Origin: Mesorhizobium sp. SARCC-RB16n
Lineage (GTDB): Bacteria; Pseudomonadota; Alphaproteobacteria; Rhizobiales; Rhizobiaceae
Length of the DNA stretch: 64,000 nt
Direction of reading: 5' to 3'
Assembly (NCBI RefSeq): GCF_008520305.1
Contig: NZ_ML703290.1
Span: 18,807-82,806, forward strand
Positions within the stretch are counted from its first letter, which is position 1; every line of letters starts with the position of its first letter. Under the pieces are notes generated by a model, which saw only the letters and a list, made by a program, of their open reading frames with translations, was not told the origin of the DNA and did not search any database. The position numbers were made by a program, and so were the translations under genes. Of this stretch, positions 15,428 to 38,655 are shown one piece after another.

Positions 15428-15504
15428 GGTCCCGTAGCTCAGTAGGATAGAGCGGCAGATTCCTAATCTGTAGGTCACAGGTTCGATTCCTGTCGGGATC
15501 ACCA
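15428..15504 (+). tRNA. tRNA-Arg (anticodon CCT)
   Basis: A 77-nt cloverleaf can be drawn by hand. Acceptor GGTCCCG pairs with CGGGATC (one G:U). The D stem is GCTC/GAGC, the anticodon stem GCAGA/TCTGT with loop TTCCTAA (anticodon CCT, reading AGG), and the T arm ACAGG-TTCGATT-CCTGT. The 3' CCA is encoded. It sits directly before an accessory block, as tRNA genes often do, but no duplicated tRNA 3' end was found within the window. Confidence 0.95.
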
Positions 15505-16072: not shown

Positions 16073-16384
16073 TCACCCATTGGAGGCTGCTCTCAGACCT
16101 GTCCTTGATAGCGGAATGATCAGCGCCTCACAATTTCGCCCGCTGGGGTGCTGGCCGTTGTCCTGCAATGGGGGCCAAGACCGACCGCTCCCATCTTCGT
16201 CACCGGGCCCTTTCGGCCGGTCTGGAGTTTCTCCTGTCGAGCCGCCGACTTCGAAGAAAATTCTGCTGACGGCAGCTGCTTTGGTGTCCCCGAGCCAGGG
16301 GTTGTTACCCGGGTGAATGAAAATCCCATACGTGCCATGCATGACGGCCAGCGCGATGAGTGTTATAAGCGATCGCGATGGCAC
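16073..16384 (-). CDS. candidate small secreted or membrane protein downstream of the decarboxylase
   Basis: An open frame of 103 codons starting with GTG two bases after the decarboxylase stop (TGA-TT-GTG). Residues 3-22 are hydrophobic (SLITLIALAVMHGTYGIFIH), like a signal anchor, followed by a Pro/Gly-rich soluble tail with one Cys. Position and orientation fit a fourth gene of the ATP-grasp/PLP operon, and this stretch would otherwise be about 360 bp of non-coding DNA. There is no clear ribosome binding site and no family was recognised. It may be spurious. If real, a short exported product or a substrate peptide is conceivable. Confidence 0.3.
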   Translation of the reverse strand: MPSRSLITLIALAVMHGTYGIFIHPGNNPWLGDTKAAAVSRIFFEVGGSTGETPDRPKGPGDEDGSGRSWPPLQDNGQHPSGRNCEALIIPLSRTGLRAASNG

Positions 16385-16386
16385 AA

Positions 16387-17850
16387 TCAGGCACAGTATT
16401 TGGCGAGAAATCCCACGAAATCGTCGATGTCGGCTATAGTCGTTCGATGATTGACAATAGCACAACGCACCACGAGCTCGCCGTTTATGGATGTCCATGA
16501 GGGCGAAGCCAATCCGGATTCTTGCAGGTTCATGACCAAACTCCGGACAAACTCGGCGTTGCCCCCGCGAATGCCGAAGCAGACGATGTTGAGGGTCACT
16601 GGCGCCTTCAGCTCGAAAGCAGGGCAACTCGTCAGGCGCTCCGCGAGGTAATGTGCGAGCACGCAGGTGTGCGCTATCGACGCTCCTATGCGAACCGTTC
16701 CAAGCGCCTCGATTGTCATCCATGTTTTCAATGCGCGGAACCCGCGCGACAAGTCCGGACCTAGATCGCAAGGCCAGGTTTCGCCAGCGGCAAGCCCGCG
16801 TTCGCCCCGCTGTAGATAGGCGGTAGGCTGCACGAACGTACGCTTCTGGGCGTCGCCATCCCGCACCAGCAGGAATCCGGCATCGTAAGGAACCTGGCCC
16901 CATTTGTGAAAGTCGAGGGCCACCGATGCCGACTTTTCGATGCCCTTGAACAATCCGCGCAGGGAATCTGACAACACGGCGAGTGCGCCAATAGCTCCAT
17001 CGACATGAAACCAGAGCTTTTCCGCGGACGCGATATCGGCGATTTCCGCGAGTGGGTCGATAGCCCCGGTGTTTACAGTACCCGCGGTCCCTACGACCAA
17101 AAATGGCAAAAGTCCCTTCGCCCGGTCTTCCCTGATGCCTGCGTACAGTGCGTCAGGCAGCATCCTTCCGGCATCGTCAACCGCGACGTTCCTCAGATTT
17201 GCCGATCCGATACCGGACAGCTGCATTGCCTGCGCGATGCAGGAATGAGCCTCTCTGGACGCATACGCGACGAGCTGGCGGTCGCAGTTCCCCAGGCCGG
17301 TCTCCCGAACGGACTGACCCAACGCTTCATTCCTGGCGATCGTGACCGCGACGAAGTTTGCCATCGAAGAGCCGGTGAGAAACAATCCGCTCGCGCCGGT
17401 GGGGTAGCCGAGGGCTTCGCTCATCCAGCGCACGATCTGTTGTTCAACCGCCAGGCCAGCATGGTCGCGGCCGCCGCAGTTCATGTTCAGCCCGCCCGCG
17501 ACGATTTCCGCCAACATTCCGATCGGCGTACCAGCACCATGAACCCATCCCATGAACAACGGATGCAGGTTGCCGGTCGCGAATGGCATGATGTGCTTGC
17601 GCACATCGTCCAGGACATCGCCCAATTCGCGAGAACCGTTCGGTAGCGGGCGGGCAAACCTCTCACGCGTTTCATCGGTCGGTCGCTGCCATACCGGCTT
17701 CTGCCTGATCGTTTCGATGTGGGCGATCATGTCGTCCAGCAAGCCGTGCGCTACCTCGCGAAACTGATCCCAGTTCGATGGATCAAGGCTGGTGGAGGTC
17801 TCCGCCACACTTTGTCCTGCTGGGCGTTTCTGCTCGATGGACAGCGACAT
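16387..17850 (-). CDS. PLP-dependent amino-acid decarboxylase (group II, aromatic-L-amino-acid type)
   Basis: A 487-residue fold-type I PLP enzyme of the DOPA/tryptophan/glutamate decarboxylase superfamily. Visible are the PLP-stacking His in REAHSCIAQA (His202), the cofactor Asp in WFHVDGAIGA (Asp284), and the Schiff-base Lys in DFHKWGQVPYDAG (Lys316). The N-terminal three-helix segment with PLPNGSRELGDVL and HPLFMGWVHGAGTP is typical. It should release CO2 from an amino acid to give an amine; the substrate is unknown. Its ATG overlaps the stop of the preceding PLP gene by one base (TGATG), so translation is coupled and the products probably act together. Confidence 0.9.
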   Translation of the reverse strand: MSLSIEQKRPAGQSVAETSTSLDPSNWDQFREVAHGLLDDMIAHIETIRQKPVWQRPTDETRERFARPLPNGSRELGDVLDDVRKHIMPFATGNLHPLFMGWVHGAGTPIGMLAEIVAGGLNMNCGGRDHAGLAVEQQIVRWMSEALGYPTGASGLFLTGSSMANFVAVTIARNEALGQSVRETGLGNCDRQLVAYASREAHSCIAQAMQLSGIGSANLRNVAVDDAGRMLPDALYAGIREDRAKGLLPFLVVGTAGTVNTGAIDPLAEIADIASAEKLWFHVDGAIGALAVLSDSLRGLFKGIEKSASVALDFHKWGQVPYDAGFLLVRDGDAQKRTFVQPTAYLQRGERGLAAGETWPCDLGPDLSRGFRALKTWMTIEALGTVRIGASIAHTCVLAHYLAERLTSCPAFELKAPVTLNIVCFGIRGGNAEFVRSLVMNLQESGLASPSWTSINGELVVRCAIVNHRTTIADIDDFVGFLAKYCA

Positions 17851-19394
17851 CAAGCATCCAGCGGATGTCGGAGGACAGCAGATAGTTTCTCGAAGAATAC
17901 ATCGAGCCTTGATTCGATCGGACCGAACGCCTGATGCAACGACTGGCCCGCCGACATCCTCTTCGAGACGCTGATCACATCGGGGGCGGAGGCCGCAACG
18001 CGCAACACCGTGCGTGGACCGACACGCACGGCTTGCCCGACGTGGCAGATCGGGCCCTCGTTGAGACCGCGCATCAGCACCTGAATGGTTTGGCACTCCT
18101 CGACCGAAGCGAAAGAGCCCGCGCTGTTTGTGACGGTCAGCGGGACCATTGCCCGTGAGCCGAGATGGTCGCCGTCATCATCGTGATGCAGGGAGATGCC
18201 CTTGACTGCGCCAGTTCGTGAGCGAACCAGGCGAACAAACTGTTCCTTGACGAGGTTTTGCCGGAGTTCATCGATCTCGGCATAGGGGTCAAGATGAGCC
18301 AACGCAGCGACCCACCGCAAACCCAGGCCCAGATTCAATTCCGACTTGAACGCGAAGGTCATCCGTTGGCGAAGGGTCGCCGGCCAATCTTGAGCCGCGG
18401 TATATTCCGCCAGGCCTGCCGGAATATCGGAACTTGCCGCAATATCTCCGGCCAATCCCGCCGGGATGAGAAGTGCGCCGGAAAAAGGCGGCCCGGCGAT
18501 GAACTTGGATCCCGTCACAGCCACCACGAAACCGTCTTCCAGATCCTGCCTGAGTTGGGAAATTGAGCCGCGGAACTGGCAGGCATCGACGATAACCCGC
18601 ACCCGACCTGGGGCAAGAGCCGCAGCGTGGCGCGCGGCTTGTCGGGTCACCGCCGGCAAGGCGGTTTTCGATGTGTCGAGCACATGGACGAGGACATCTC
18701 GATCTAGCTTGAGCTCCAGCTCGACGGTGGCGATGATGTCGGCATCGATTTCATGTTGATGTCGAGGCTTGCCTTTCTCGTCGCGGATGGCAATCGTGCG
18801 CACTTCGATGCGGCCTGGCGACAGCCCTTCAAGGGGAGCACCAGCCTCGACCGCGCTACCGAGTGCCGTCAAATCCGAGTAATGCCGCCCTGCCGCCGCC
18901 CGTGGAACCCCATTTCCTGTTTCGTCAGGTGCAACAAGCAAATTGGTCAAGGGGCGCCTGGAGAGGCCTGCAATCGTGCAGAGCGCGAGAAGCTCCGCAT
19001 CCGTCCCGGAAGCGGCGAGAATGACTTGCGCTCCCGTACAGCCAAGATCGGAAACAATTCGCTCTCGAATGTCGCTGAACCATCGATCGGATGCGACAGG
19101 CGAAGGTGACTCGATATCAATGAGGCGTCGCAGCTCGACCCCGGCCGCCATCAACCCCTCCCGAGAGGCGTTGCTGGCCGTTGTCGACGAGAATGAGATC
19201 TCATCGTCCGCCGAAGTCGTGCGTGTTCCATAGCGATTGCGCCGCGTGATTGCATCCAGCCAGATGCGCCTGTCGCCACCTGTCCCGAGCAGGAATGAAA
19301 GGGAGGCCGGCGAATGGAGCTCGCGATCCCACCCACCCATTTCCGAGGTTGGATTCGCCGGCACCTGCGGGATACCAAGCTGAATTGCAGGCAT
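17850..19394 (-). CDS. fold-type I PLP-dependent enzyme of unknown specificity
   Basis: A 514-residue protein with the layout of an aminotransferase/cysteine-desulfurase-like PLP enzyme. A phosphate-binding turn ASGTDAE (residues 128-134), a conserved-looking DETGNGVPRAAAGRHY, the cofactor-contacting Asp in VIVDACQFRGS (Asp270) and a candidate Schiff-base Lys in VTGSKFIAGPPFSGALLIP (Lys297) occur in the expected order. I could not assign a known enzyme. The start ATG 19394 has GGAGAACGTC ahead of it; the longer frame to 19490 overlaps the upstream gene and was not used. It is the middle gene of the ATP-grasp, PLP enzyme, decarboxylase operon. Confidence 0.75.
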   Translation of the reverse strand: MPAIQLGIPQVPANPTSEMGGWDRELHSPASLSFLLGTGGDRRIWLDAITRRNRYGTRTTSADDEISFSSTTASNASREGLMAAGVELRRLIDIESPSPVASDRWFSDIRERIVSDLGCTGAQVILAASGTDAELLALCTIAGLSRRPLTNLLVAPDETGNGVPRAAAGRHYSDLTALGSAVEAGAPLEGLSPGRIEVRTIAIRDEKGKPRHQHEIDADIIATVELELKLDRDVLVHVLDTSKTALPAVTRQAARHAAALAPGRVRVIVDACQFRGSISQLRQDLEDGFVVAVTGSKFIAGPPFSGALLIPAGLAGDIAASSDIPAGLAEYTAAQDWPATLRQRMTFAFKSELNLGLGLRWVAALAHLDPYAEIDELRQNLVKEQFVRLVRSRTGAVKGISLHHDDDGDHLGSRAMVPLTVTNSAGSFASVEECQTIQVLMRGLNEGPICHVGQAVRVGPRTVLRVAASAPDVISVSKRMSAGQSLHQAFGPIESRLDVFFEKLSAVLRHPLDA

Positions 19395-19434
19395 GACGTT
19401 CTCCGTTGTCGGGGCGATAGCGAATTGGTTTCGG

Positions 19435-21252
19435 TTAAAGCGGTTCACTGGCCGCCACGGCACCCGCCAGATAAGAGATCTCGGCGTCATGACTGATCAA
19501 CGGTTCGAGATCGCTCGCCCGCTGAGTGAATTCCAATCCGCATCGGTCGACATAGGATCGATCGACGCGTTCGCAGAAACCCGGGTCGATGATCTTCTCG
19601 CCGTCCCAAAGAACGGCATGACCGGTGTTTGGAACGGTCGGTGAAACCACGCCTATGATCGCGGGTTTGGCCCAGAGCATGTAGATACTGCTCAGAAGAA
19701 CGAAACCGCACTTGTTGGCCACGCCCCGCATGATGGAATGGCTCATCGGTCCGCCGAGCGGGTATGCGGGATCGCAGCTTCGTGCGATTTCCTCGACTTG
19801 TTCGTAGGTTCGGCCCGTGAGCATCGCCAGGACACAGACAAGGCAGTCGTCATCAGTTCTCTGGTAGACTGCAGGTTTTCCGGTATGGGCGCATTCGATC
19901 GCTGGCGTGGACGTCGTCCGCGCCACGCGCCGTGCCAGCGCGCCTTCGAATGCCGCGAAGAGCTTGCGCATGGCGCTTTTCTTGTAGGGGAAGATGCTTT
20001 CCCAATCCATGGAATGAACGATCATCGCGACATCCGCCTCGAACACCAGCAGGCGGCCATCTGCGAGTTCGGCGCAATCGATGGCGAAGTAGTCCAGCCC
20101 GAGACGTCGATGAAGAGCATCGAATGCAGGGGCGTGACGCACCGCGAAGTCGTTTTCGAAGTTTGCCATCCACAACGCTTCCTCGGCGCGCCTGTCTTCG
20201 TGCTGGGTCATGCCGGCGTTGAGGTAGTGAACCATCCAATGCTCGGAGACCGCGAGATGGCTGGCATAGGGCCGCCCGTTGATGAACGCGACGCGCTGCT
20301 TGCGGAATTTGCGATCAGTCCCGCTGTAGTCGATGAACGGCGTGATGTAGAATTCGCTCTCGTCCTGCGAATTCAGATAAGCGGCAAGCTCCGGTCGCGT
20401 GGAGATCTTCTCCATTCCCTTGCCGGCATGGGTGCCGACCGGGCGGACAATCACAGGAAACGCGGCCGCCGCGAGGATTGCGTCGACCTCGATTTCCCCG
20501 GAAGCCAGCCTCTTGATCACCGCTCGATCGGCGCGCGCGGCTGGCGGGGCAAGGATCGAAGGCTCGTCCTTCAACGCCTCCGCGACCCCGTCCCTGGACA
20601 GGGCCATGATGAGACGTGGCGCGTTGTTCATTATGGGGCCGGACCAGCCGCGCAGCAGCCGGTGAAGATTTTCCAGTACTGGAAGATTTACCGCGGACTC
20701 TCCGACGGCCACGAAGGCGACATCGTGCTCGGGAACATCGTTCAGGTCCGCGGTGTCGGCGTCGACGTAATGGAGCAGCAGGTTCGCGTCGGAGCCCTCC
20801 AGCAGAAATTCGATCGGCGTGTTCGCCATGAAGTCGCCGGCAGTCACGAAAACAAGAACGTTCGGTCCTGTGCCTTGTCCGTTGCGTATCCGGTATTTTC
20901 GACTGATCTCGAGCGCGGCCTTCTGGCTGATGGCAGCCTTGTCTTCCTCTCCGATTGCGTGGAGGAGGATCGATACATCCAGGAACGCGGCGGCATCGTC
21001 GAGATCAGCGGAAACGCGCGCGAACAGCTCGTCCCATATTGGGGAAATATCCCTTCCTTCAAAGACGGCGCGGACTATGGGGGCCTTACCCAAGATGAGG
21101 TTCGAATTTTCCGACACGTGTGCCTTGGCTGCCGCGCTTTTCAACGTCTCAAGCCCTTCCGTCACGCGGTGGTGCGGCCGTCCCGGCCTCGACTTCGTTG
21201 CCCAACACGATGGGCGATTGTTGCTCTCAGCGCTTGTGCGAGCCTTGTGCAT
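19435..21252 (-). CDS. ATP-grasp ligase fused to a C39-like cysteine peptidase domain
   Basis: Up to 605 residues. Residues about 85-125 look like a TPR-type helical hairpin and 128-215 like the pre-ATP-grasp domain (NVLVFVTAGDF). Residues 215-440 form an ATP-grasp fold: FPVIVRPVGTHAGKGMEKI supplies the ATP-binding Arg and Lys, and DYFAIDCAELADGRLLVFEA supplies acidic Mg2+ ligands. Residues 455-580 form a papain/C39-like domain with Cys470 (QRTDDDCLVCVLAMLTG), His545 (NTGHAVLWDG) and Asp556 (IIDPG). Such enzymes join a carboxylate to an amine via an acyl phosphate; the fused peptidase suggests peptide processing. The start is uncertain: ATG 21252, or GTG at 21165 or 21117 (the last preceded by AAGG). 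Forty bases separate it from the PLP gene. Confidence 0.85.
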   Translation of the reverse strand: MHKARTSAESNNRPSCWATKSRPGRPHHRVTEGLETLKSAAAKAHVSENSNLILGKAPIVRAVFEGRDISPIWDELFARVSADLDDAAAFLDVSILLHAIGEEDKAAISQKAALEISRKYRIRNGQGTGPNVLVFVTAGDFMANTPIEFLLEGSDANLLLHYVDADTADLNDVPEHDVAFVAVGESAVNLPVLENLHRLLRGWSGPIMNNAPRLIMALSRDGVAEALKDEPSILAPPAARADRAVIKRLASGEIEVDAILAAAAFPVIVRPVGTHAGKGMEKISTRPELAAYLNSQDESEFYITPFIDYSGTDRKFRKQRVAFINGRPYASHLAVSEHWMVHYLNAGMTQHEDRRAEEALWMANFENDFAVRHAPAFDALHRRLGLDYFAIDCAELADGRLLVFEADVAMIVHSMDWESIFPYKKSAMRKLFAAFEGALARRVARTTSTPAIECAHTGKPAVYQRTDDDCLVCVLAMLTGRTYEQVEEIARSCDPAYPLGGPMSHSIMRGVANKCGFVLLSSIYMLWAKPAIIGVVSPTVPNTGHAVLWDGEKIIDPGFCERVDRSYVDRCGLEFTQRASDLEPLISHDAEISYLAGAVAASEPL

Positions 21253-21265
21253 GCAGGCAAACGGG

Positions 21266-21282
21266 CCTTACGGATTTGTAAT
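21266..21282. promoter_or_regulatory. palindromic box 1 (CCTTAC-GGATTT-GTAAT)
   Basis: One of six boxes with the form CCWTAC-N6-GTAAG found between 21 and 39 kb. This copy matches 10 of the 11 half-site positions. It lies in the divergent intergenic region, about 100 bp before the small membrane ORF at 21384 and close upstream of the ATP-grasp gene. The spacer GGATTT resembles boxes 3 and 5. I infer it is bound by the response regulator at 31.5 kb. Confidence 0.5.
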
Positions 21283-21383
21283 ACCCCGGCAACGCTCCCG
21301 TATGCTTGATCGGACATAGTCGCCGACGAACCGCAGCGGCTACCTGTCCATAAGCTGGCGAGTTCGAGGGGTGACTTCCAAAG

Positions 21384-21533
21384 ATGCTGGACCGCGGTTA
21401 CTCCACCCTATCGGGCAAGTGGATCCGGATCGCCACGACCGTGGCGCTTCTCGCCATTGTCTGCCTGCTGATCGTCATGCCCGGCCTTGGGCCGCTCGCG
21501 GACGAACGCTCTTACGTGCTTTGGGTCTGGTAA
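21384..21533 (+). CDS. candidate 49-residue single-span membrane protein
   Basis: ATG 21384 opens a 49-residue frame with a basic start and a clear transmembrane segment (RIATTVALLAIVCLLIVMPG), ending in a Trp-rich tail YVLWVW. AGGGG lies 13 bp before the ATG, which is rather far. It precedes the GT39 gene by about 27 bp in the same orientation. Either it is a true small membrane protein of the cassette or the remnant of a larger gene; no family was recognised. Confidence 0.45.
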   Translation: MLDRGYSTLSGKWIRIATTVALLAIVCLLIVMPGLGPLADERSYVLWVW

Positions 21534-21559
21534 CCCAATGCTGCTGGATCAGTTCAGGG

Positions 21560-23167
21560 ATGATGCCGGTGCTGCCAGGCCGCGCGTTGCAAGCCTGGCC
21601 AAAAGGCACTCCTGCTTCCCCTGTTTTCCAACTGATTGTCGTGGTCGTCGCATTTCTGGTGCTCCGGATTGGACTTGCCTCGGTCATTCCGCTGTCGATC
21701 GACGAGGCTTATGCGGTTGTGGTGTCGCGCAGCCATTCGCTTTCATATTTCGACCACCCGCCACTGGGTTTCGCGCTGGCCCGTCTGATGGCGGATGTTT
21801 TCGGCTGTGAATGCCGGCTTGCCGTCCGGCTGCCTTATGTGGTGCTCGGCTCGCTCTCGACGCTGCTGCTTTTCGAACTGACCCGCCATGCCTACGGCAA
21901 GGTTGCCGCATTCTGGACCGCGGCCTGGTTCACCGTTGCGCCCTTCTTCCTTATTTCGGCAGGGCATTTCGTCGTGCCCGACGGGCCACTCGATTTCTTT
22001 CTTCTGGCCAGCGCCTGTGCCGCCGTGCCCATGGTTCTGGGCGAACGGCCACGCTTCGCTTTGCTCCGCTGGATCATCGTCGGCGTCGCTTTCGGCCTGG
22101 CGCTGATGTCGAAGTACCAGGCCGGGCTGTTTGGCATCTCGGCCCTGCTTGTCTTGGTGTCGACGCAGTCCGGCCGGGCCGAACTGCGAACGCCAGGCCC
22201 CTGGATTGCCGGCGCCATCGCAACGCTTGGCCTGCTGCCCGTCATCATCTGGAATATGGACCATGGCTGGATCTCGTTTGCCTTCCAGACCGGCCGCGGC
22301 CTTGCCGAGGATGGCCATGCCCTCCACCCTGGAAATCTTGCCATCACGTTGCTGGGCCAGGCTGGCTATTTGTGGCCGCCGACCTGGCTTCTGGCCATGG
22401 CGTGCATGTGGGACGCAGCCCGCAGCGATTCGGTGGCCGATCGGTTCTTCGTGACGATCGCGGCGCTGCCGGTGGTGTTCTTCGACTTGGTCGCCCTGTT
22501 CAGCGCCCATTCCCTGCCGCACTGGTCGATGAGCGGCTTCCTGTTCGCCTTTCCGCTTTTCGGTCAATGGTGCAGCCGTCTTGCCGAACGCCGACCTGGA
22601 TTGCTGCGGCTGTCCTTTATCATAGCCGCCATCGTCGTTCCGCTCCTGGCGATGGGGTTTGCGGTGCAGGTCCGGGCCGGCGCCTTCACGCGGGCGTTCT
22701 ATGAACGAGCGCCGAAATTCGACGTCAATTGGCAACTCGTCGATTGGTCTGCGCTGACCAGTGAGCCGCAGGGCAGCGATCTCAGCGGCGCCAACGCCTA
22801 TGTGGTCGCATCGAACTGGATGCAGGCGGCGCGGGCCGCCGACGCTCTTGGACCGGACGTACCGATAGAGGTGCTGCCGGGCGACCCGCGCCATTTCCAG
22901 TTCATGAACGACGGGCGCTTGAAGACGCGAAGCGCTGGCTTCTTCGTCGGCGCCCTGGATTTCGGCAAGGAAGCGGCTCGCGAGAAGGAGTATCGCGACG
23001 GCCTTGACGGACGATACGTCGTCGATGGCCCGCCCCGGCGCCTCATACAGCGCATCGCCGGGTTTCCAGTCTTCGAAATCCTGATCCTGCCGGTCAACCG
23101 CATTGTGGCATCGCAAGCGCTCTTGCCAGGCGACGACCAAGCAAACGATGGCGGGCCGCGTCCTTGA
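21560..23167 (+). CDS. GT39/ArnT-like glycosyltransferase, polytopic
   Basis: A 535-residue membrane protein of the PMT_2/ArnT type. The first periplasmic loop carries the catalytic acidic motif SIDEAYAVVVSRSH and DHPPLG, followed by about ten hydrophobic helices and a periplasmic C-terminal domain. It should use a polyprenyl-phosphate sugar made by the following GT2 enzyme and transfer it to lipid A, a polysaccharide or a protein in the periplasm. The start is uncertain: ATG-ATG at 21560/21563 begins the natural N-terminus, while the in-frame GTG at 21371 would add 63 residues without membrane or domain character. Its stop overlaps the next start. Confidence 0.85.
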   Translation: MMPVLPGRALQAWPKGTPASPVFQLIVVVVAFLVLRIGLASVIPLSIDEAYAVVVSRSHSLSYFDHPPLGFALARLMADVFGCECRLAVRLPYVVLGSLSTLLLFELTRHAYGKVAAFWTAAWFTVAPFFLISAGHFVVPDGPLDFFLLASACAAVPMVLGERPRFALLRWIIVGVAFGLALMSKYQAGLFGISALLVLVSTQSGRAELRTPGPWIAGAIATLGLLPVIIWNMDHGWISFAFQTGRGLAEDGHALHPGNLAITLLGQAGYLWPPTWLLAMACMWDAARSDSVADRFFVTIAALPVVFFDLVALFSAHSLPHWSMSGFLFAFPLFGQWCSRLAERRPGLLRLSFIIAAIVVPLLAMGFAVQVRAGAFTRAFYERAPKFDVNWQLVDWSALTSEPQGSDLSGANAYVVASNWMQAARAADALGPDVPIEVLPGDPRHFQFMNDGRLKTRSAGFFVGALDFGKEAAREKEYRDGLDGRYVVDGPPRRLIQRIAGFPVFEILILPVNRIVASQALLPGDDQANDGGPRP

Positions 23168-24324
23168 ACCAGGTGACATACCCAGTGCCAGACGTCGAAC
23201 TGGCGACGGACACAAGCGGCGGTGCATCGCTGCAACGCCGCGGGGCGGAACTCACGGTCGTCGTCCCAACGCTGAACGAGCGCGCGAACATCGATCTGCT
23301 GGTTGCGCGGCTGCACAAGTCGCTGCTCGGGATCAACTGGGAAGTGGTCTTTGTCGATGACGATTCAAAAGACGGGACGATTGCGGCTGTCCGCGACATT
23401 GCCAGCCATGATTATCAGGTTCGCGGCATAAGGCGCATCGCCCGCCGCGGCCTCGCCGGCGCATGCCTCGAGGGCGTCCTGTCCAGCTCGGCGCCCATCG
23501 TTGCAGTCATGGACGGCGATCTCCAGCACGACGAAACATGTCTTGCCGCGATGTTCGAGACGATGCGAGGCGGCGGCGCCGATCTGGTGGTGGCCAGCCG
23601 TTATGGAGACGATGGCGATGCTAACAGCGGATTGAGCCGGCTGCGTTCGGGTGGCAGCCGGCTGGCGACGCATCTCGCGCGGCTATTGCTGAAGGTTCCG
23701 CTCAGCGATCCAATGAGCGGCTTCTTCATGGTGCGGCGTGACATAGTCGATGCGGTGGCGCCGCGCCTGTCGCGGCAAGGCTTCAAGATCCTGCTGGACA
23801 TTGTCGCATCGTCGCCGACACCACTTCGCATCCGGGAAATCCCCTATGTGTTCGGTCCGCGCCTGCATGGACAAAGCAAGCTCGATTCCCTGATTGTGCT
23901 TGAATATCTGGGATTGCTGGTCGCCAAGGCGTCGGGCGATCTGATCTCGACGCGCTTTCTTGCCTTCGGCCTCGTCGGCTCGGCCGGTGTCGTGGTCCAC
24001 CTCAGCGTCCTGCATGTGCTGCTGCCGCATGGCTTGCCTTTCACGGTGGCTCAGACCGCCGCCATGTTCACGGCCATGGCGTTCAACTATACGCTGAACA
24101 ACACATTCACCTATCGCGACCAGCGCCGGCACGGCTGGCGCTTCGTCACCGGCTTCGCGATGTTCGCGGCGTTGTGCAGTTTTGGTGTCGTGGCGGGCGT
24201 CGGCGTGTCGACGCTTCTTTACACCAGTCCGTCGCGCTGGTGGGCGGCCGGGCTTGCCGCCGCCGCCGTCGGCTCCGCTTGGAACTATATCACCAACTCC
24301 GCCATCACCTGGCGCGTGCGTTGA
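23164..24324 (+). CDS. GT2 dolichol-phosphate-mannose synthase-like enzyme with C-terminal GtrA domain
   Basis: A 386-residue two-domain protein. Residues 30-250 form a family 2 glycosyltransferase with VVVPTLNERANI, the nucleotide-sugar Asp pair in VFVDDDSKDGT, and MDGDLQHDE for the metal. Residues 260-386 form a GtrA domain with four helices (FLAFGLVGSAGVVVHLSVLH; FNYTLNNTFTYRD). It probably loads a sugar on undecaprenyl phosphate and may help flip it, supplying the GT39 transferase. The frame begins at TTG 23164, overlapping the GT39 stop (TTGA), so translation is coupled; a GTG at 23173 is an alternative start. Confidence 0.88.
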   Translation: MNQVTYPVPDVELATDTSGGASLQRRGAELTVVVPTLNERANIDLLVARLHKSLLGINWEVVFVDDDSKDGTIAAVRDIASHDYQVRGIRRIARRGLAGACLEGVLSSSAPIVAVMDGDLQHDETCLAAMFETMRGGGADLVVASRYGDDGDANSGLSRLRSGGSRLATHLARLLLKVPLSDPMSGFFMVRRDIVDAVAPRLSRQGFKILLDIVASSPTPLRIREIPYVFGPRLHGQSKLDSLIVLEYLGLLVAKASGDLISTRFLAFGLVGSAGVVVHLSVLHVLLPHGLPFTVAQTAAMFTAMAFNYTLNNTFTYRDQRRHGWRFVTGFAMFAALCSFGVVAGVGVSTLLYTSPSRWWAAGLAAAAVGSAWNYITNSAITWRVR

Positions 24325-24363
24325 TCGCCCGAAACGAGCCCGAAAACAGACGGAAATCCCCAA

Positions 24364-24915
24364 ATGTACCCAATCGATGCCGCAGTGACCGCCTGGATCA
24401 ACAATTGGGCGGGACACGCTCCCGCAGTCGATTTCATCATGATCTGGATATCGACGCTCGGCGTTCCGCTCATGGTGCTGGCAGTCGCCTTGCAATGGTG
24501 GCTGCCCCAGTCGGACCGGACCACCCGCCATGTGGTGGTGGCAACAGGCCTGTCGTTCTTGCTTGGTCTCGGAATCAACCAGCTGGTGTTGCTGTTCATA
24601 CAGCGGGTGCGTCCCTACGACGCTCATGTCACGCATCTGATTATCGGGCGGACCGTAGATTTCTCATTCCCGTCCGACCATGCCACAGCGAGCTTTGCCA
24701 TCGCGGCGGCGTTTCTGTTGCACGGCTTGCATCGCCGCGGGCTCGCATTTCTGGCGGCCGCATTGCTGGTCATGCTGTCACGCGTTTATTTGGGGACGCA
24801 CTATGTCAGCGACATTCTCGGCGGGGCCGTCACGGCAATCATGGCGGCTATGCTGGTGCGCGCAGCCTACAGGCAGAACACGCGAGCCGATCGTCTGATC
24901 ACCGGGATATTGTAA
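24364..24915 (+). CDS. PAP2-family phosphatase (undecaprenyl-diphosphatase-like)
   Basis: A 183-residue integral membrane PAP2 phosphatase. The three catalytic motifs are present: QRVRPYDAH (a form of KxxxxxxRP), FPSDHATASF (PSGH-type with Asp for Gly), and SRVYLGTHYVSDILGG (SRxxxxxHxxxD). About five helices are predicted. It should recycle undecaprenyl pyrophosphate or dephosphorylate a lipid donor, which fits its place as third gene of the GT39/GT2 cassette, 39 bp after the GT2 stop. Confidence 0.9.
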   Translation: MYPIDAAVTAWINNWAGHAPAVDFIMIWISTLGVPLMVLAVALQWWLPQSDRTTRHVVVATGLSFLLGLGINQLVLLFIQRVRPYDAHVTHLIIGRTVDFSFPSDHATASFAIAAAFLLHGLHRRGLAFLAAALLVMLSRVYLGTHYVSDILGGAVTAIMAAMLVRAAYRQNTRADRLITGIL

Positions 24916-24936
24916 AGAGGCATCAGTCGAATGGCG

Positions 24937-24974
24937 ACCGGCAGGGATCGGATGAACGCCCAGTCCCTGCCGGT
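24937..24974. terminator. bidirectional hairpin between convergent genes
   Basis: A perfect 11-bp inverted repeat (ACCGGCAGGGA at 24937-24947, TCCCTGCCGGT at 24964-24974) with a 16-nt loop. It sits between the ends of the PAP2 gene and the DUF1344 gene and can serve both. Confidence 0.55.
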
Positions 24975-34125: not shown

Positions 34126-34184
34126 AACATTCGAAGGCCAGGAAATTACTCGCCAGACGCTTTTCGTCATCTGGCGATCGCAAA

Positions 34185-34201
34185 CCTTACGGATCGGTAA
34201 G
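34185..34201. promoter_or_regulatory. palindromic box 5 (CCTTAC-GGATCG-GTAAG)
   Basis: A perfect CTTAC-N6-GTAAG palindrome with the GGAT-type spacer shared with boxes 1 and 3. It is 123 bp before the RND membrane fusion protein gene and probably controls the efflux operon. Confidence 0.6.
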
Positions 34202-34323
34202 CCGGCCGCGATGCGCCTGTAAGGTTGGCCACGCATCATACCCGCCACGGACCCGTGGGTCGCCAGGAACTCGCCGCACGTCTATTGTGGACGCAAGAAT
34301 GGGACGGACGAGAGACTGCGTGA

Positions 34324-35442
34324 ATGATCGCCGACCGGTGTGGATCAATGCTAATCCTTCAGGCTCTTGCTCTGGGCGTGCTGAGCCTCACCTCGGCTGG
34401 CGTCGAGGCTTTTGCAGCCGACGCCGCTATTCCGGTGGTTGCGGATGTGGCGCGTCGGTCCGATGTCCCGATTTTTCTCATTGGCCTCGGCTCCGTCGCC
34501 CCGCTCCGCACGGTCAACGTGACCAGCCGGATAGACGGCGAACTGATCAAGCTCGACTTCGCTGACGGACAAGACGTGCATGCCGGCGATCTGCTCGCCG
34601 AAATCGATCCGCAACCCTTGCAGGCGGCGCTGGCACAGGCCGAGGCCACCAAGGCGCGAGACGACGTGTCGTTGGCGAATGCCAGGCTGGACCTCGCCCG
34701 GGCCCAGACCCTAACCACCAAGGGCGTTGGCTCGACCCAGGTGCTGGATACGGCGAAGGCGACCGTGGCGCAGCTAGAGGCGACCGACAAGGTCGACCAG
34801 GCCGCCATCGACATACAGCAGATCCAGCTTCGCTTTACGCAGATACGTTCGCCGCTGGATGGTCGCGTCGGCATCCACACGGTCGATGCCGGTACCATCG
34901 TCCGCGCCAGCGATACGGCTGGCATCGTCAGGATCAACCAGATCCACCCCATCGCCGCCGACTTCTCGCTGCCGTCGGACGATCTCCCCCGCATCCAGCA
35001 GATGATGAAGGCCGGCAACGCGCCTGTTGTTGCGCAGGACGATGGCGGCCAGCAACTGGCCACCGGCCGCCTGAGCGTCGTCGACAACCAGATCAACAAT
35101 GCCACCGCGACAATCAGGATACGCGCCGTCTTCGACAATGCCGACGACCGCCTGTGGCCGGGGCAGTTCGTCAATGTCCGCGTCCAGGTCGAATTGCAGC
35201 GAGGCGTTGTCACCGTCCCGGTGACCGCCATCGTGCGCGGCCCTGACGGAACCTATGCCTTCATCGTCGGCAAGGACCGGCACATCGTCAAACGGCCGGT
35301 GACGGTGGCGTATTCAAATGCCGAACTCGCCGTTGTCGGGACAGGCATCGAGCCCGGCGACACCATCGTCACCGATGGCCAATATCGCATCCAGGAGGGA
35401 GATCTGGTCGATGTCACCGGCCCGGCTCAAGCGGCGAACTAG
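34324..35442 (+). CDS. RND efflux membrane fusion protein (MdtA-like)
   Basis: A 372-residue periplasmic adaptor. The signal peptide (to about residue 31, AFA-ADA) is followed by the first beta-barrel/lipoyl half (SRIDGELIKLDFADGQDVHA), a coiled-coil hairpin (residues about 95-160, rich in Ala/Gln/Lys), the second lipoyl half (IRSPLDGRVGIHTVDAG) and the membrane-proximal domain (RGVVTVPVTAIVRGPDGTYA). It links the inner-membrane pump to an outer-membrane channel; no TolC-type gene is in the window. ATG 34348 (MLILQALALG) is an alternative start. The pump gene begins 3 bp after the stop. Confidence 0.92.
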   Translation: MIADRCGSMLILQALALGVLSLTSAGVEAFAADAAIPVVADVARRSDVPIFLIGLGSVAPLRTVNVTSRIDGELIKLDFADGQDVHAGDLLAEIDPQPLQAALAQAEATKARDDVSLANARLDLARAQTLTTKGVGSTQVLDTAKATVAQLEATDKVDQAAIDIQQIQLRFTQIRSPLDGRVGIHTVDAGTIVRASDTAGIVRINQIHPIAADFSLPSDDLPRIQQMMKAGNAPVVAQDDGGQQLATGRLSVVDNQINNATATIRIRAVFDNADDRLWPGQFVNVRVQVELQRGVVTVPVTAIVRGPDGTYAFIVGKDRHIVKRPVTVAYSNAELAVVGTGIEPGDTIVTDGQYRIQEGDLVDVTGPAQAAN

Positions 35443-35445
35443 CGC

Positions 35446-38400
35446 ATGAACATTTCCGCGCCCTTCATCGTCCGTCCGATCGCCACCACGCTGCTGGCTA
35501 TCGGTGTGACACTGGTGGGTCTTGTCGCTTATTTCCTGTTGCCGATCGCCGGCGTGCCGCAGGTCGAAATCCCGACGCTGCAGATATCGGCCAGTCTGCC
35601 GGGTTCGAACGCCGAGACGATGGCGACGACGGTCGCGGCGCCGCTGGAAAGGCAGCTCGCGCTGATTTCCGGCGTGACATCCATCAGTTCGAGCAGCTCG
35701 CTCGGGCGCACCTCGATCCAGGTCGAATTCGGGCTCGACCGCACTCTCGACGGCGCCGCCCAGGACGTGCAGACCGCGATCAGCGCCGCCAGCGGCGACC
35801 TGCCGAAGGACCTACCCAGCCCGCCGACCTACGAGAAGGCCAACCCGGCCGACGCGCAGCTGATGTCGATCGCCGTCACCTCTACCGATCTGCCGATCGA
35901 CAAGGTCGACGACTATGTCGAGAACTACCTGGCGCTGCAGCTATCACGGGTCACCGGGGTCGGACTGGTCGATTTCCACGGGGAGCAGAAATCGGCGGTC
36001 CGTATTCAGATCAACCCATCGGCGGCCGCCGCGCTCGGCCTCAGCCTCGAAGACATCCGCGCCGCGATATCGAGCGCCAGCGTCAACGCGCCGAAGGGCA
36101 CGCTGAACGGTCCGAAGCAATCGCTGACGCTGGCCGCCACCGACCAGCTGTCCAACGCCGCGGCCTTCAACTCGGTGATCATCGCCTATCGCAATGGCGC
36201 GCCGGTTCGCGTCAGCGACATCGGCACGGCGATAGACGGCGTCGAGGATATCAGGCAGGCGGCGTGGCTCGGCAGTCAGCGCGCCGTCATCATCGACGTC
36301 CACAAGCAGCCGGGCTTCAACATCAACCAGACGGTGCAGCTCATCAAGGACGTGCTGCCGGAGCTTCAGCGCACGCTGCCGCCCTCGGTCAAGATGCAGA
36401 TCCTGGGCGACCGCACCCAGACGATCCGAGCTTCCGTTTCCGAAGTGCAGTTCACCATGGCGATCAGCATCGGCCTGGTCGTTCTGGTCATCTTCCTGTT
36501 CCTGCGCCATGTGCGCGCCACGCTCATTCCAAGCATCACCATCCCGGTGTCGCTACTGTGCACCTGCGCGGCGATGTATCTGCTCGGCTACACGATCGAC
36601 AACGTGTCGTTGATGGCGCTGACGATTGCCGTCGGCTTCATCATCGACGACGCTATCGTCATGGTGGAAAATATCATCCGCCATATCGAGAATGGTGACA
36701 CGCCGCTCGAAGCAGCGCTTACGGGCGCGCGCGAGATCGGCTTCACCATCATCTCGATGACGTTGTCGCTGGTCGCCGTGTTCATCCCGCTGCTCTTGAT
36801 GGGCGGACTGATTGGCCGGCTGTTCCGGGAATTCGCGGTCGCGGTCAGCATCGCCATCATCATGTCCGGGCTGATATCGCTGACGCTGACGCCGATGATG
36901 TGCGGCTGGCTGCTGAAACCGATCAACCGCGATGCGCGCGAGAACATCGCGTCGCGGGCGCTCGAAGCCGTCTTCACCGGCATGCTCCATGTCTACGAGG
37001 TCGGCCTGCGCTGGGTGTTGCAGCACAAGCCGGTGATGCTGCTGTTCATGGCGGCCATGCTTGGCGCTACCGGCTACCTCTACCAGGTCATCCCCAAGGG
37101 ATTTTTCCCGCAGCAGGACAACGGCACCATTTCGGGATCTTCCGAAGCCGCGCAGGATATCTCCTACGACGCCATGGTTCAGCGCCAGCACGAACTGGCC
37201 AAGGTGGTCACCGCCGACCCGGACGTGCAGACGGTCTATTACTGGGTTGGCGCCAATCCGACCGTCAACAGCGGCCGGCTGATGATCGACCTGAAGCCGC
37301 TGAGCGAGCGCCATGCGACGGCGACGCAGGTAATCAATCGCCTGCGCAAGGCGGCGGCGAAAGTCGAGGGCATCGCGCTGTTCGGCCAGGCTCGGCAGGA
37401 CGTGCAGATCGGCGCGCGGGTCAGCAAGACCCAGTACCAGTACACGCTGCAGGACCCTGACGTGAACGAGCTGTTCAAATGGGCGCCAATCATGCTGGCC
37501 AAGCTCCAGACCTTGCCGGAGCTGCAGGACGTGACAGGGGACCTTCAGGCAAGCGCGCCGCGGATGACGCTGAAGATCGACCGCGACCTGATCGGCCAGC
37601 TCGGCATCACGCCGCAAGCCGTCGACGATACGCTGTATGATGCCTTCGGCCAGCGTCAGGTGGCGACGATCTTCACCCAACTCGACCAGCATCATGTGGT
37701 GCTGGAGCTGCAGCCACGCTTCCAAGAGGATGCATCGGCGCTGGCGCGTCTGTTCGTGCGCTCCGGCACCAGCGGGCAGATGGTGCCGCTGTCGGCTCTG
37801 GCGCATTACGAAACTTCGGTGTCGCCGCTGACGATCAACCACCAGGACCAGTTTCCGGCGGTGACGCTGTCGTTCAATCTGGCGGCCGGGCATTCGCTCG
37901 GCGACGCGATCACCGCGATCCAGAAGCTCGAACAATCGATGATCCTGCCGCCGACACTGACGACGCGCTACCAGGGCTCGGCAAAGGTCTTCCAGTCGTC
38001 GCTGGCCAACCAGCCGTACCTGATCCTGGCCGCGATCATCGCCGTCTATATCGTGCTCGGTATCCTTTATGAGAGCTTCGTGCACCCGATCACGATCCTG
38101 TCGACGCTGCCGTCGGCGGGCGTCGGCGCCTTCCTGGCACTGATGGCGCTAGGCTATGATTTTTCGCTCATCGCGCTCATTGGCGTCATCCTGCTCGTCG
38201 GCATCGTCAAGAAGAACGCGATCATGATGATCGACTTCGCGCTCGAAGGAGAGCGACGACGAAACCTGTCCGCGGAAGATGCCATATACCAGGCCTGCAT
38301 GATGCGCTTCCGCCCGATCATGATGACGACGATGGCGGCGCTGCTCGGCGGCCTGCCGCTGGCGCTTGGCAGTGGTGCCGGCTCCGAACTTCGCCGGCCA

Positions 38401-38655
38401 CTCGGCATCGCCATTGTCGGTGGCTTGCTGCTGTCGCAGTTCCTGACGCTCTACACGACGCCCGTGATCTATATCTATCTCAGCCGGTTCAGCCATCTCA
38501 GATGGTTCTGGCGCCGCAAGGCCGATCAGGAAATCGTGGCACCAGTCCAGGCGCCGACGTGGGGTGTTCCGCAACCCGACGGCGGGTTTCCAGTAAGAAG
38601 CCTCCATCCGAAGCAGCGAAGAGGTGAGTCTCTATCGAACGCAAAACCGGGCTGA
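35446..38655 (+). CDS. RND-family efflux permease (MdtB/AcrB-like)
   Basis: A 1069-residue pump of full RND length with 12 helices and two large periplasmic loops. The start ISAPFIVRPIATTLLAIGVT is typical. Helix 4 carries the proton-relay Asp pair (VGFIIDDAIVMVENIIRH), and VIPKGFFPQQDNGTISG and ILLVGIVKKNAIMMIDFA (with the conserved Lys) mark the second half. It exports drugs or other hydrophobic compounds in exchange for protons. Only one permease gene is present, unlike the MdtBC pair. The C-terminal 50 residues are a basic, proline-rich tail. Confidence 0.95.
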   Translation: MNISAPFIVRPIATTLLAIGVTLVGLVAYFLLPIAGVPQVEIPTLQISASLPGSNAETMATTVAAPLERQLALISGVTSISSSSSLGRTSIQVEFGLDRTLDGAAQDVQTAISAASGDLPKDLPSPPTYEKANPADAQLMSIAVTSTDLPIDKVDDYVENYLALQLSRVTGVGLVDFHGEQKSAVRIQINPSAAAALGLSLEDIRAAISSASVNAPKGTLNGPKQSLTLAATDQLSNAAAFNSVIIAYRNGAPVRVSDIGTAIDGVEDIRQAAWLGSQRAVIIDVHKQPGFNINQTVQLIKDVLPELQRTLPPSVKMQILGDRTQTIRASVSEVQFTMAISIGLVVLVIFLFLRHVRATLIPSITIPVSLLCTCAAMYLLGYTIDNVSLMALTIAVGFIIDDAIVMVENIIRHIENGDTPLEAALTGAREIGFTIISMTLSLVAVFIPLLLMGGLIGRLFREFAVAVSIAIIMSGLISLTLTPMMCGWLLKPINRDARENIASRALEAVFTGMLHVYEVGLRWVLQHKPVMLLFMAAMLGATGYLYQVIPKGFFPQQDNGTISGSSEAAQDISYDAMVQRQHELAKVVTADPDVQTVYYWVGANPTVNSGRLMIDLKPLSERHATATQVINRLRKAAAKVEGIALFGQARQDVQIGARVSKTQYQYTLQDPDVNELFKWAPIMLAKLQTLPELQDVTGDLQASAPRMTLKIDRDLIGQLGITPQAVDDTLYDAFGQRQVATIFTQLDQHHVVLELQPRFQEDASALARLFVRSGTSGQMVPLSALAHYETSVSPLTINHQDQFPAVTLSFNLAAGHSLGDAITAIQKLEQSMILPPTLTTRYQGSAKVFQSSLANQPYLILAAIIAVYIVLGILYESFVHPITILSTLPSAGVGAFLALMALGYDFSLIALIGVILLVGIVKKNAIMMIDFALEGERRRNLSAEDAIYQACMMRFRPIMMTTMAALLGGLPLALGSGAGSELRRPLGIAIVGGLLLSQFLTLYTTPVIYIYLSRFSHLRWFWRRKADQEIVAPVQAPTWGVPQPDGGFPVRSLHPKQRRGESLSNAKPG

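What the first reader, a model, noticed from the sequence alone, without database searches (positions are those of the whole stretch)
16073..21252. Possible undescribed biosynthetic operon: ATP-grasp/C39 fusion, PLP enzyme and decarboxylase
Three genes on one strand (gap 40 bp, then a one-base TGATG overlap) encode an ATP-grasp ligase fused to a cysteine peptidase-like domain (Cys470, His545, Asp556), an unassigned fold-type I PLP enzyme and an aromatic-type amino-acid decarboxylase. The combination of an amide-forming ligase, a peptidase on the same chain and two amino-acid modifying PLP enzymes suggests a pathway that makes and trims an amino-acid-derived amide or peptide. No standard pathway I know has this set. 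The block lies beside a tRNA gene, as accessory regions often do.
Basis: partly seen in the sequence, partly recalled or inferred. Interest (0 to 1): 0.75.

Follow-up and report, generated by a model that had tools for sequence, protein, structure and literature searches.

The report
Conserved amide-forming enzyme gene trio
Three neighbouring genes for a probable carboxylate-amine ligase, an unassigned vitamin-B6 enzyme and an amino-acid decarboxylase form a conserved cassette that in some other bacteria sits inside the flagellum gene cluster, which suggests an undescribed way of decorating flagella or another cell-surface target.

Summary
The three genes are real and co-directional (- strand, 21144 to 16387). 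They travel together: 13 of 15 related loci from named genomes carry all three. The C39-like domain is optional: 3 of those 13 trios lack it. The decarboxylase does not keep the aromatic pocket of DOPA decarboxylase. The wider unit is ATP-grasp ligase plus decarboxylase, usually with gene 2, a fold-type I PLP protein without a Pfam, NCBIfam or PDB-sequence match. Decarboxylase-ligase and gene2-ligase fused frames exist. In one unnamed genus of large genomes, 23 of 27 fetched loci have the cassette in a flagellar locus (FlgK/FlgL-like genes on one side, FlbT/flagellin on the other), with a glycosyltransferase-like gene and once a TPR-glycosyltransferase. One genome in each of two other families has it beside flagellin genes. 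Best reading: the decarboxylase makes an amine, the ligase joins it to a carboxylate, gene 2 tailors a building block; in the flagellar lineages the acceptor is probably flagellin or its glycan. In the window and its rhizobial branch no flagellar neighbour was found, so the target there is open. Substrates and product are untested.

The parts
20623..21144 (-). gene 1, N-terminal part: short TPR-like helical stretch and pre-ATP-grasp region
   Evidence: helices in the predicted model; two relatives of the ligase were shown to have TPR arrays (L077, L081) and one TPR matches (L132); NCBI names a close relative 'tetratricopeptide repeat-containing protein'
19930..20622 (-). gene 1, ATP-grasp catalytic region
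   Evidence: invariant R234, H239, G241, D277, R281, K282, R284, D356, E369, H377, K388 over 16 diverse sequences; Foldseek matches to D-Ala-D-Ala ligase and RimK; no curated Pfam/NCBIfam cut-off reached
19435..19926 (-). gene 1, C-terminal C39/papain-like domain
   Evidence: invariant Gln464, Cys470, Cys473, His545, Asp556 in 10 sequences; no Pfam or NCBIfam match; low-confidence model; optional in relatives
17850..19394 (-). gene 2, fold-type I PLP enzyme of an unassigned family
   Evidence: model pLDDT 78.5; the 50 Foldseek hits listed are PLP fold-type I enzymes; invariant K297 (TGSKF), D270 (VDACQ), SGTD 129-132, R465 in 11 diverse sequences; no Pfam, NCBIfam or PDB-sequence match
16387..17850 (-). 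gene 3, group II PLP-dependent decarboxylase
   Evidence: PF00282 2e-56; K316 (DFHKWG) and Y345 invariant; nearest solved relative by sequence is R. gnavus tryptophan decarboxylase 4obu
21371..23167 (+). divergent neighbour, PMT-type glycosyltransferase; shares one block with the trio in the nearest genome
   Evidence: PF13231 8.5e-24; similar gene beside the trio in L015, and a PMT_2/ArnT-type gene near the ligase in L030
23164..24324 (+). neighbour, GT2 glycosyltransferase with GtrA domain
   Evidence: PF00535 and PF04138
24364..24915 (+). neighbour, PAP2 phosphatase
   Evidence: PF01569 3.7e-16
15428..15504 (+). tRNA-Arg (CCT) beside the block

Best explanation
The operon is a rhizobial branch of a broad, undescribed enzyme cassette that builds an amide. 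Gene 3 decarboxylates an amino acid to an amine; the ATP-grasp ligase (gene 1) activates a carboxylate as acyl phosphate and joins it to an amine; gene 2 (PLP) prepares or tailors one building block and can be lost. In some lineages the cassette belongs to a flagellar locus, where the most likely acceptor is flagellin or its glycan, with the TPR-like N-terminus of the ligase as docking element, as in the flagellin glycosyltransferase FlmG. In the window's branch the ligase also carries a C39-like hydrolase domain that may proofread or remove the product, and the acceptor is unknown. Shown: gene structure, conservation, conserved catalytic motifs, co-occurrence, fusions, flagellar position in other lineages. 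Inferred: the reactions, the amide product, the flagellin target, the C39 role.
For: Co-occurrence: 13 of 15 named-genome loci hold all three genes in a row. Of 25 regions fetched around gene-2 hits, 18 hold all three profiles (in L132 the ligase is a TPR relative on the other strand, 2.7 kb away), 2 hold gene 2 with the decarboxylase, 5 hold gene 2 without the other two. In those 2, and in all 3 carriers found in family f37 (2 of the 5 regions, plus L071), an ATP-grasp of another subfamily sits beside the genes. Fused frames: decarboxylase-ligase 884 aa (L067), gene2-ligase 961 aa (L153). Flagellar position: 23 of 27 g291 loci, all 23 with the glycosyltransferase-like gene GTx; G121 with flagellin and FlbT between ligase and gene 2; G512 directly after flagellin, FliD and FliS genes. 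L162 carries a TPR-glycosyltransferase of FlmG-like architecture inside the cassette. On two trees the flagellar label needs at least 2 changes. FlmG precedent: its TPR domain binds flagellin (PMC7591256, abstract and passages).
Against: No flagellar gene was found in the window, nor in 17 loci of this branch and its kin that were checked, with nine flagellar queries and the flanks that were fetched; none in 13 of 16 lineages by my tally, within the stretches fetched. In family f222 only 1 of 3 carriers (G512) is flagellar. Flagellin presence separates carriers of a cassette gene from other genomes only weakly (37 of 41 against 31 of 41, two-sided p 0.14; by genus 21 of 22 against 28 of 38, p 0.04), and the controls were hand-picked. 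In g291, 17 of 59 gene-2 carriers lack DUF1522 flagellin; of the 10 of these fetched, 7 have other flagellins beside the cassette and 3 have only a gene-2 copy. One g291 locus has FlgK-FlgL-FlbT-flagellin without the cassette (L181), so it is not needed for a flagellum. Three of the five gene-2-only regions (L130, L131, L145) showed no ligase by the profile search. No substrate, product or expression data. The ligase model is weak (pLDDT 59).
Confidence: 0.5

Rival explanations
1. Free small-molecule pathway: the trio makes a soluble pseudopeptide or N-acyl amine (dapdiamide- or E-64-like logic), unrelated to flagella; the flagellar position in some lineages is hitch-hiking.
For: The fungal E-64 clusters pair an ATP-grasp enzyme with a PLP decarboxylase used as search beacon (PMC12568646, passages). 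The window branch is plasmid-borne in some Rhizobium, has strong matches in 7 of 37 same-genus genomes and has no flagellar neighbours. A TetR-family regulator lies upstream in L013, with similar ORFs in other Mesorhizobium loci.
Against: No shared exporter was seen by eye beside the trios listed. The flagellar position is kept in 23 of 27 g291 loci and seen in one genome of each of two other families. TPR-like or TPR N-termini point to a protein partner.
Confidence: 0.3
2. The cassette modifies another surface polymer (lipid-linked sugar, capsule or O-antigen), with flagellin only one of several acceptors; in the window the PMT-type glycosyltransferase, GT2/GtrA and PAP2 genes beside it are partners.
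For: The trio and these three genes share one 8.6-kb block with the nearest genome (96%); PMT-type and GT2-GtrA genes also lie beside the trio in L015, and PMT-type, GtrA and GT2 genes beside the ligase alone in a Cupriavidus plasmid.
Against: They were not seen beside the other Mesorhizobium and Rhizobium trios listed; the arrangement differs between the window and L015.
Confidence: 0.15
3. Graspetide-like RiPP system in which the ligase modifies a ribosomal peptide and the C39-like domain cleaves it.
For: C39-like domain on the ligase; graspetide ligases among the structural matches; C39 peptidase-transporters are frequent in graspetide loci (PMC8939145, passages).
Against: No small ORF is conserved across lineages beside 16 trios (one weak cross-lineage hit); the C39-like domain is optional; no 'pyridoxal' or 'decarboxylase' in the main text of the graspetide survey.
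Confidence: 0.05

Closest known systems
FlmG flagellin O-glycosyltransferase system (Caulobacter; PMC7591256, abstract and passages seen)
   Same: modular enzyme with N-terminal TPR part in an alphaproteobacterium; a TPR-glycosyltransferase of this architecture lies inside the cassette in L162
   Different: FlmG is a glycosyltransferase; here the TPR-like part is on an ATP-grasp ligase accompanied by PLP enzymes; pseudaminic acid genes were not looked for
ATP-grasp amide pathways with a PLP decarboxylase (fungal E-64; PMC12568646, passages seen)
   Same: amine from PLP decarboxylation, amide made by an ATP-grasp enzyme
   Different: no epoxysuccinate synthase or amide bond synthetase was seen here; flagellar linkage in some lineages
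Methanofuran pair MfnA (tyrosine decarboxylase) and MfnD (ATP-grasp tyramine-glutamate ligase); MfnD recalled
   Same: decarboxylase plus ATP-grasp, amine plus amino acid to amide
   Different: gene 3 scores far below the MfnA cut-off (66.8 of 299.4 bits); no MfnD-named model was hit
Amidoligase gene neighbourhoods of Iyer et al. 2009 (recalled; only its reference entry was seen; the paper is not held)
   Same: ATP-grasp ligases fused or linked to papain-like peptidases (recalled)
   Different: whether this trio is described there could not be checked

Membership tests
Group II PLP decarboxylases (PF00282) | family profile over cut-off, Schiff-base Lys, catalytic-loop Tyr | tested here: met
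   191.8 bits against cut-off 27; K316 and Y345 invariant in 10 diverse sequences
Aromatic L-amino-acid decarboxylase | aromatic substrate pocket (Ile101, Phe103 of DDC; residue numbers recalled) | tested here: not met
   aligned strip is NxNxGGR(D/N)H in all 10 sequences
ATP-grasp superfamily | profile match over a curated cut-off | tested here: not met
   CPSase_L_D2 12.8 of 19.8 bits; rimK_fam 14.4 of 143.4 bits
ATP-grasp superfamily | fold and ATP/Mg motif residues | tested here: inconclusive
   the 18 Foldseek matches at E<=0.001 are ATP-grasp-fold proteins, but with low TM-scores on a pLDDT 59 model; FE-x-D/N/E motif kept in 15 of 16 sequences, L031 has FEIA
Peptidase C39 / papain-like | Gln-Cys-His-Asp constellation (pattern recalled) | tested here: met
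   Gln464, Cys470, His545, Asp556 invariant in 10 sequences
Peptidase C39 / papain-like | profile or fold match | tested here: inconclusive
   no Pfam or NCBIfam match; the domain is modelled with low confidence
PLP fold-type I | fold, PLP-lysine and Asp in register | tested here: met
   899 PDB matches at E<=0.001, the 50 listed are PLP fold-type I enzymes; D270 and K297 27 residues apart
Known PLP families | sequence match | tested here: not met
   0 Pfam, 0 NCBIfam, 0 PDB sequence matches; a distant relative (L137) hits a cysteine desulfurase model at 0.0013
FlmG-type flagellin modification | location with flagellin genes | tested here: inconclusive
   met in 23 of 27 g291 loci, G121 and G512; not met in the window and its branch
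FlmG-type flagellin modification | binding to and modification of flagellin | not testable with these tools
   needs protein work
Graspetides | precursor peptide gene beside the ligase | tested here: not met
   no conserved small ORF beside 16 trios
Methanofuran MfnA/MfnD | MfnA equivalog score | tested here: not met
   66.8 of 299.4 bits

The most novel reading that the evidence does not exclude
A new chemistry of flagellin modification: a TPR-docked ATP-grasp ligase joins a decarboxylated amino acid (an amine) to carboxylates of flagellin or of its glycan before export, with the gene-2 PLP enzyme supplying an unusual building block. In rhizobia the same machine has moved to another target and gained a C39-like eraser domain on the writer.
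Probability: 0.25. Interest if true: 0.85.

Novelty: new variant of a known kind. Interest (0 to 1): 0.6.

Why it matters
Flagellin is a main antigen and plant-defence elicitor, and its known decorations are mostly sugars (recalled). A cassette with a ligase and amine-making enzymes embedded in the flagellar locus of many members of one genus, and seen beside flagellin in two other families, would be a different way to coat the filament and is easy to test by mass spectrometry. It also gives a first functional lead for a PLP enzyme family without any named relative.

Tried and rejected
Aromatic decarboxylase: rejected on pocket residues. RiPP/graspetide: no conserved small ORF. Methanofuran-like pair: equivalog score far below cut-off. 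C39-like domain as the core: optional. GTx as a general partner: found in 6 of 36 genomes searched, strongly (E below 1e-50) only in the 3 g291 genomes given and in G395; in none of the 7 Mesorhizobium-type genomes given. Flagellin presence as a sharp test: weak. Structure of the ligase: too poor to place a substrate. Second aligner on the gene-2 model: library not available. Looking for the locus in a named Bradyrhizobium through old locus tags led nowhere. Literature for a named function: nothing found in searches (listings; passages of the papers named in this report); subscription papers are not covered.
Full report
1. What is in the window. Homologues begin with ATG where gene 1 has TTG 21144, after GGAAGG. 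The window's assembly is not held; the nearest genome shares 20% of the window's sampled words, and the nearest named relatives of gene 1 are Mesorhizobium.

2. Proteins. Gene 3 is a group II PLP decarboxylase. K316 and Y345 are invariant in 10 diverse sequences, so decarboxylation rather than aldehyde synthesis is expected (role of the loop Tyr recalled). The strip that carries Ile101 and Phe103 in DOPA decarboxylase (numbers recalled) reads NxNxGGR(D/N)H in all 10, so an aromatic substrate is not indicated, although the nearest solved relative by sequence is a tryptophan decarboxylase. Gene 2 has no Pfam, NCBIfam or PDB-sequence match. Its model (pLDDT 78.5) is a PLP fold-type I enzyme with no close relative; the DxxQ motif and the lysine 27 residues later recall class V, with R465 as possible carboxylate anchor (inference). 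Gene 1 misses every curated cut-off but keeps ATP-grasp-like motifs over 16 diverse relatives, and its best structural matches are D-Ala-D-Ala ligases, with RimK and graspetide ligases further down, on a weak model (pLDDT 59). Its C-terminal domain has Gln464, Cys470, His545 and Asp556 invariant in 10 sequences but matches no profile.

3. Do the genes travel together? One genome-contig scan gave 15 relatives. Thirteen hold all three genes in the same order; ten of these have the C39-like domain fused and three (L022, L024, L025) lack it; L026 has decarboxylase, ligase and a C39-like stretch in a separate frame, and no gene 2; L027 has only the C39-like part. Seven plasmid records match. Six were opened: two Rhizobium plasmids hold the trio, and four hold the ligase without genes 2 and 3 nearby, one of them (Paraburkholderia) next to a class V aminotransferase. 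Gene 1 has strong matches in 7 of 37 same-genus genomes, so it is accessory (four more genomes of that search had only weak matches).

4. The wider family. Over 385 genomes of the class, the ligase profile matched 21 and the gene-2 profile 6. An extended gene-2 profile matched 25 of 398 genomes of the phylum and 16 of 347 of the order; nine genomes are in both lists. Of 25 regions fetched, 18 hold all three profiles (in L132 the ligase is a TPR relative on the other strand); 2 hold gene 2 with the decarboxylase; 5 hold gene 2 without the other two profiles, some on short contigs. In those 2, and in all three f37 carriers found (L071, L134, L135), the neighbour is an ATP-grasp of another subfamily. 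In G139 decarboxylase and ligase are one 884-residue frame; in L153 gene 2 and ligase are one 961-residue frame. G417 and G075 have ligase and decarboxylase without gene 2 nearby. Many of the 21 class-level ligase matches are distant relatives with neither partner in the stretch fetched.

5. Flagellar context. In G121 a flagellin and FlbT lie between ligase and gene 2; in G422 the trio lies between FlgK/FlgL-like genes and FlbT/flagellins (FlgL-like is my name, its Pfam match is weak). In G512, a different family, it follows flagellin, FliD and FliS genes; two other carriers of that family (G574, G540) show no flagellar gene in the stretch. In genus g291 (unnamed; size and DUF1522 flagellins recall Bradyrhizobium, not proven) all 7 first-found genomes have FlgK, FlgL-like, GTx (glycosyltransferase-like by its motifs, no Pfam match), gene 2, ligase, decarboxylase and FlbT genes together, and 6 of 7 a flagellin within the stretch, L125 ending before it. 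Gene 2 occurs in 59 of 98 genomes of that genus. Of 20 further loci fetched, 16 have the cassette with GTx in a flagellar locus (L163 ends inside GTx, so its FlgL side is unseen; in L162 extra genes interrupt the cassette) and 4 are gene-2-only copies, two of them on contigs under 5 kb. DUF1522 flagellin occurs in 53 of 98 genomes; with gene 2 in 42, gene 2 alone 17, DUF1522 alone 11, neither 28 (p 3e-5; relatedness not corrected). Ten of the 17 were fetched: 7 have other flagellins beside the cassette, 3 only a gene-2 copy. Five regions came from 4 of the 11 DUF1522-only genomes: L182 has GTx, ligase and decarboxylase without gene 2; L179 has the same with only remnants of both ends of gene 2; L181 has FlgK-FlgL-FlbT-flagellin with no cassette; L180 is another flagellin locus of the same genome without it; L183 ends too early to tell. 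L162 has a TPR-glycosyltransferase inside the cassette, the architecture of FlmG, whose TPR part binds flagellin (PMC7591256, abstract and passages).

6. How strong is that link? By my own after-the-fact tally the trio, or the decarboxylase with the ligase or with gene 2, occurs in 16 lineages and 3 are flagellar. If the chance of lying within a few kb of a flagellin is 0.6% (my assumption), three or more has probability 1e-4; at 2%, 4e-3; and if G121 and g291 share one origin (two events), 4e-3 at 0.6%. The trees need 2 (gene 2) or 3 (decarboxylase) changes of the label, at least 2 on supported branches. Against: the window branch (10 rows, 100/100 support in both trees) has no flagellar neighbour, and the window itself has no match to nine flagellar queries; distant flagellar genes could be missed by these queries. 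G395 has gene 2 about 10 kb from a flagellin, which I did not count. Flagellin is present in 37 of 41 genomes with at least one cassette gene and in 31 of 41 others; the others were hand-picked from the listed no-match genomes, skipping several small ones, and include one with a distant ligase match, so this is no sharp test.

7. The window's own surroundings. Of the window, the 19 kb compared from the nearest genome match only 16385-24942, at 96%. This block holds the trio plus a PMT-type glycosyltransferase, a GT2/GtrA protein and a PAP2 phosphatase. L015 has the first two on the other side of its trio. The last 18 bases of the tRNA are not repeated exactly in the window. No small ORF is conserved across lineages beside 16 trios (one weak hit).

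8. Reading. Shown: a conserved cassette with conserved active-site residues, fusions and a flagellar home in some lineages. Inferred: amine by gene 3, amide by gene 1, tailoring by gene 2, flagellin or its glycan as acceptor in the flagellar lineages, unknown acceptor here. The C39-like domain is a branch-specific addition. I found no paper that describes the cassette (searches; open-licence papers only). PMC6406911 on the two flagellar systems of Bradyrhizobium has no occurrence of 'decarboxylase' or 'glycosyl' in its main text (find). The amidoligase survey of Iyer et al. 2009 is not held, so whether it mentions this family is open.

Noticed in passing
window 21371-24915: PMT-type glycosyltransferase, GT2/GtrA and PAP2 genes divergent from the trio and shared with it as one block in the nearest genome
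   Followed up: partly
window 34184-38535: Matches at 86% the stretch upstream of the trio in L015, which holds two ORFs that look by eye like RND efflux genes; hints at a larger shuffled accessory region
   Followed up: no
L162:4902-6497: TPR-glycosyltransferase of FlmG-like architecture inside the flagellar cassette, with a second ligase copy and an ORF that looks by eye like a transport solute-binding protein nearby
   Followed up: partly
L067:9124-11778 and L153:7612-10497: Single frames that fuse decarboxylase with ligase, and gene 2 with ligase
   Followed up: partly
L138:4439-7273: 944-residue protein with ATP-grasp domains and an acylphosphatase domain beside gene 2 and the decarboxylase
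   Followed up: no
L071, L134, L135: Gene 2 divergent from a D-Ala-D-Ala-ligase-like ATP-grasp in three genera of family f37
   Followed up: partly
L031:11941-14306: Plasmid-borne relative of the ligase next to a class V aminotransferase, near recombinases
   Followed up: no
L007/L012 (G037) and L030:11899-13160: The ligase is split over two reading frames in one same-genus genome and in a Cupriavidus plasmid
   Followed up: no
L077, L078, L079, L081, L082: Longer relatives of the ligase (600-767 aa); TPR arrays were shown for L077 and L081, the others were not scanned; function unknown
   Followed up: no
L179:12282-13540: Gene 2 reduced to remnants of both ends while ligase, decarboxylase and GTx remain
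   Followed up: partly
L070 (G395): Gene 2 about 10 kb from a flagellin gene on the same contig; not counted as flagellar
   Followed up: no
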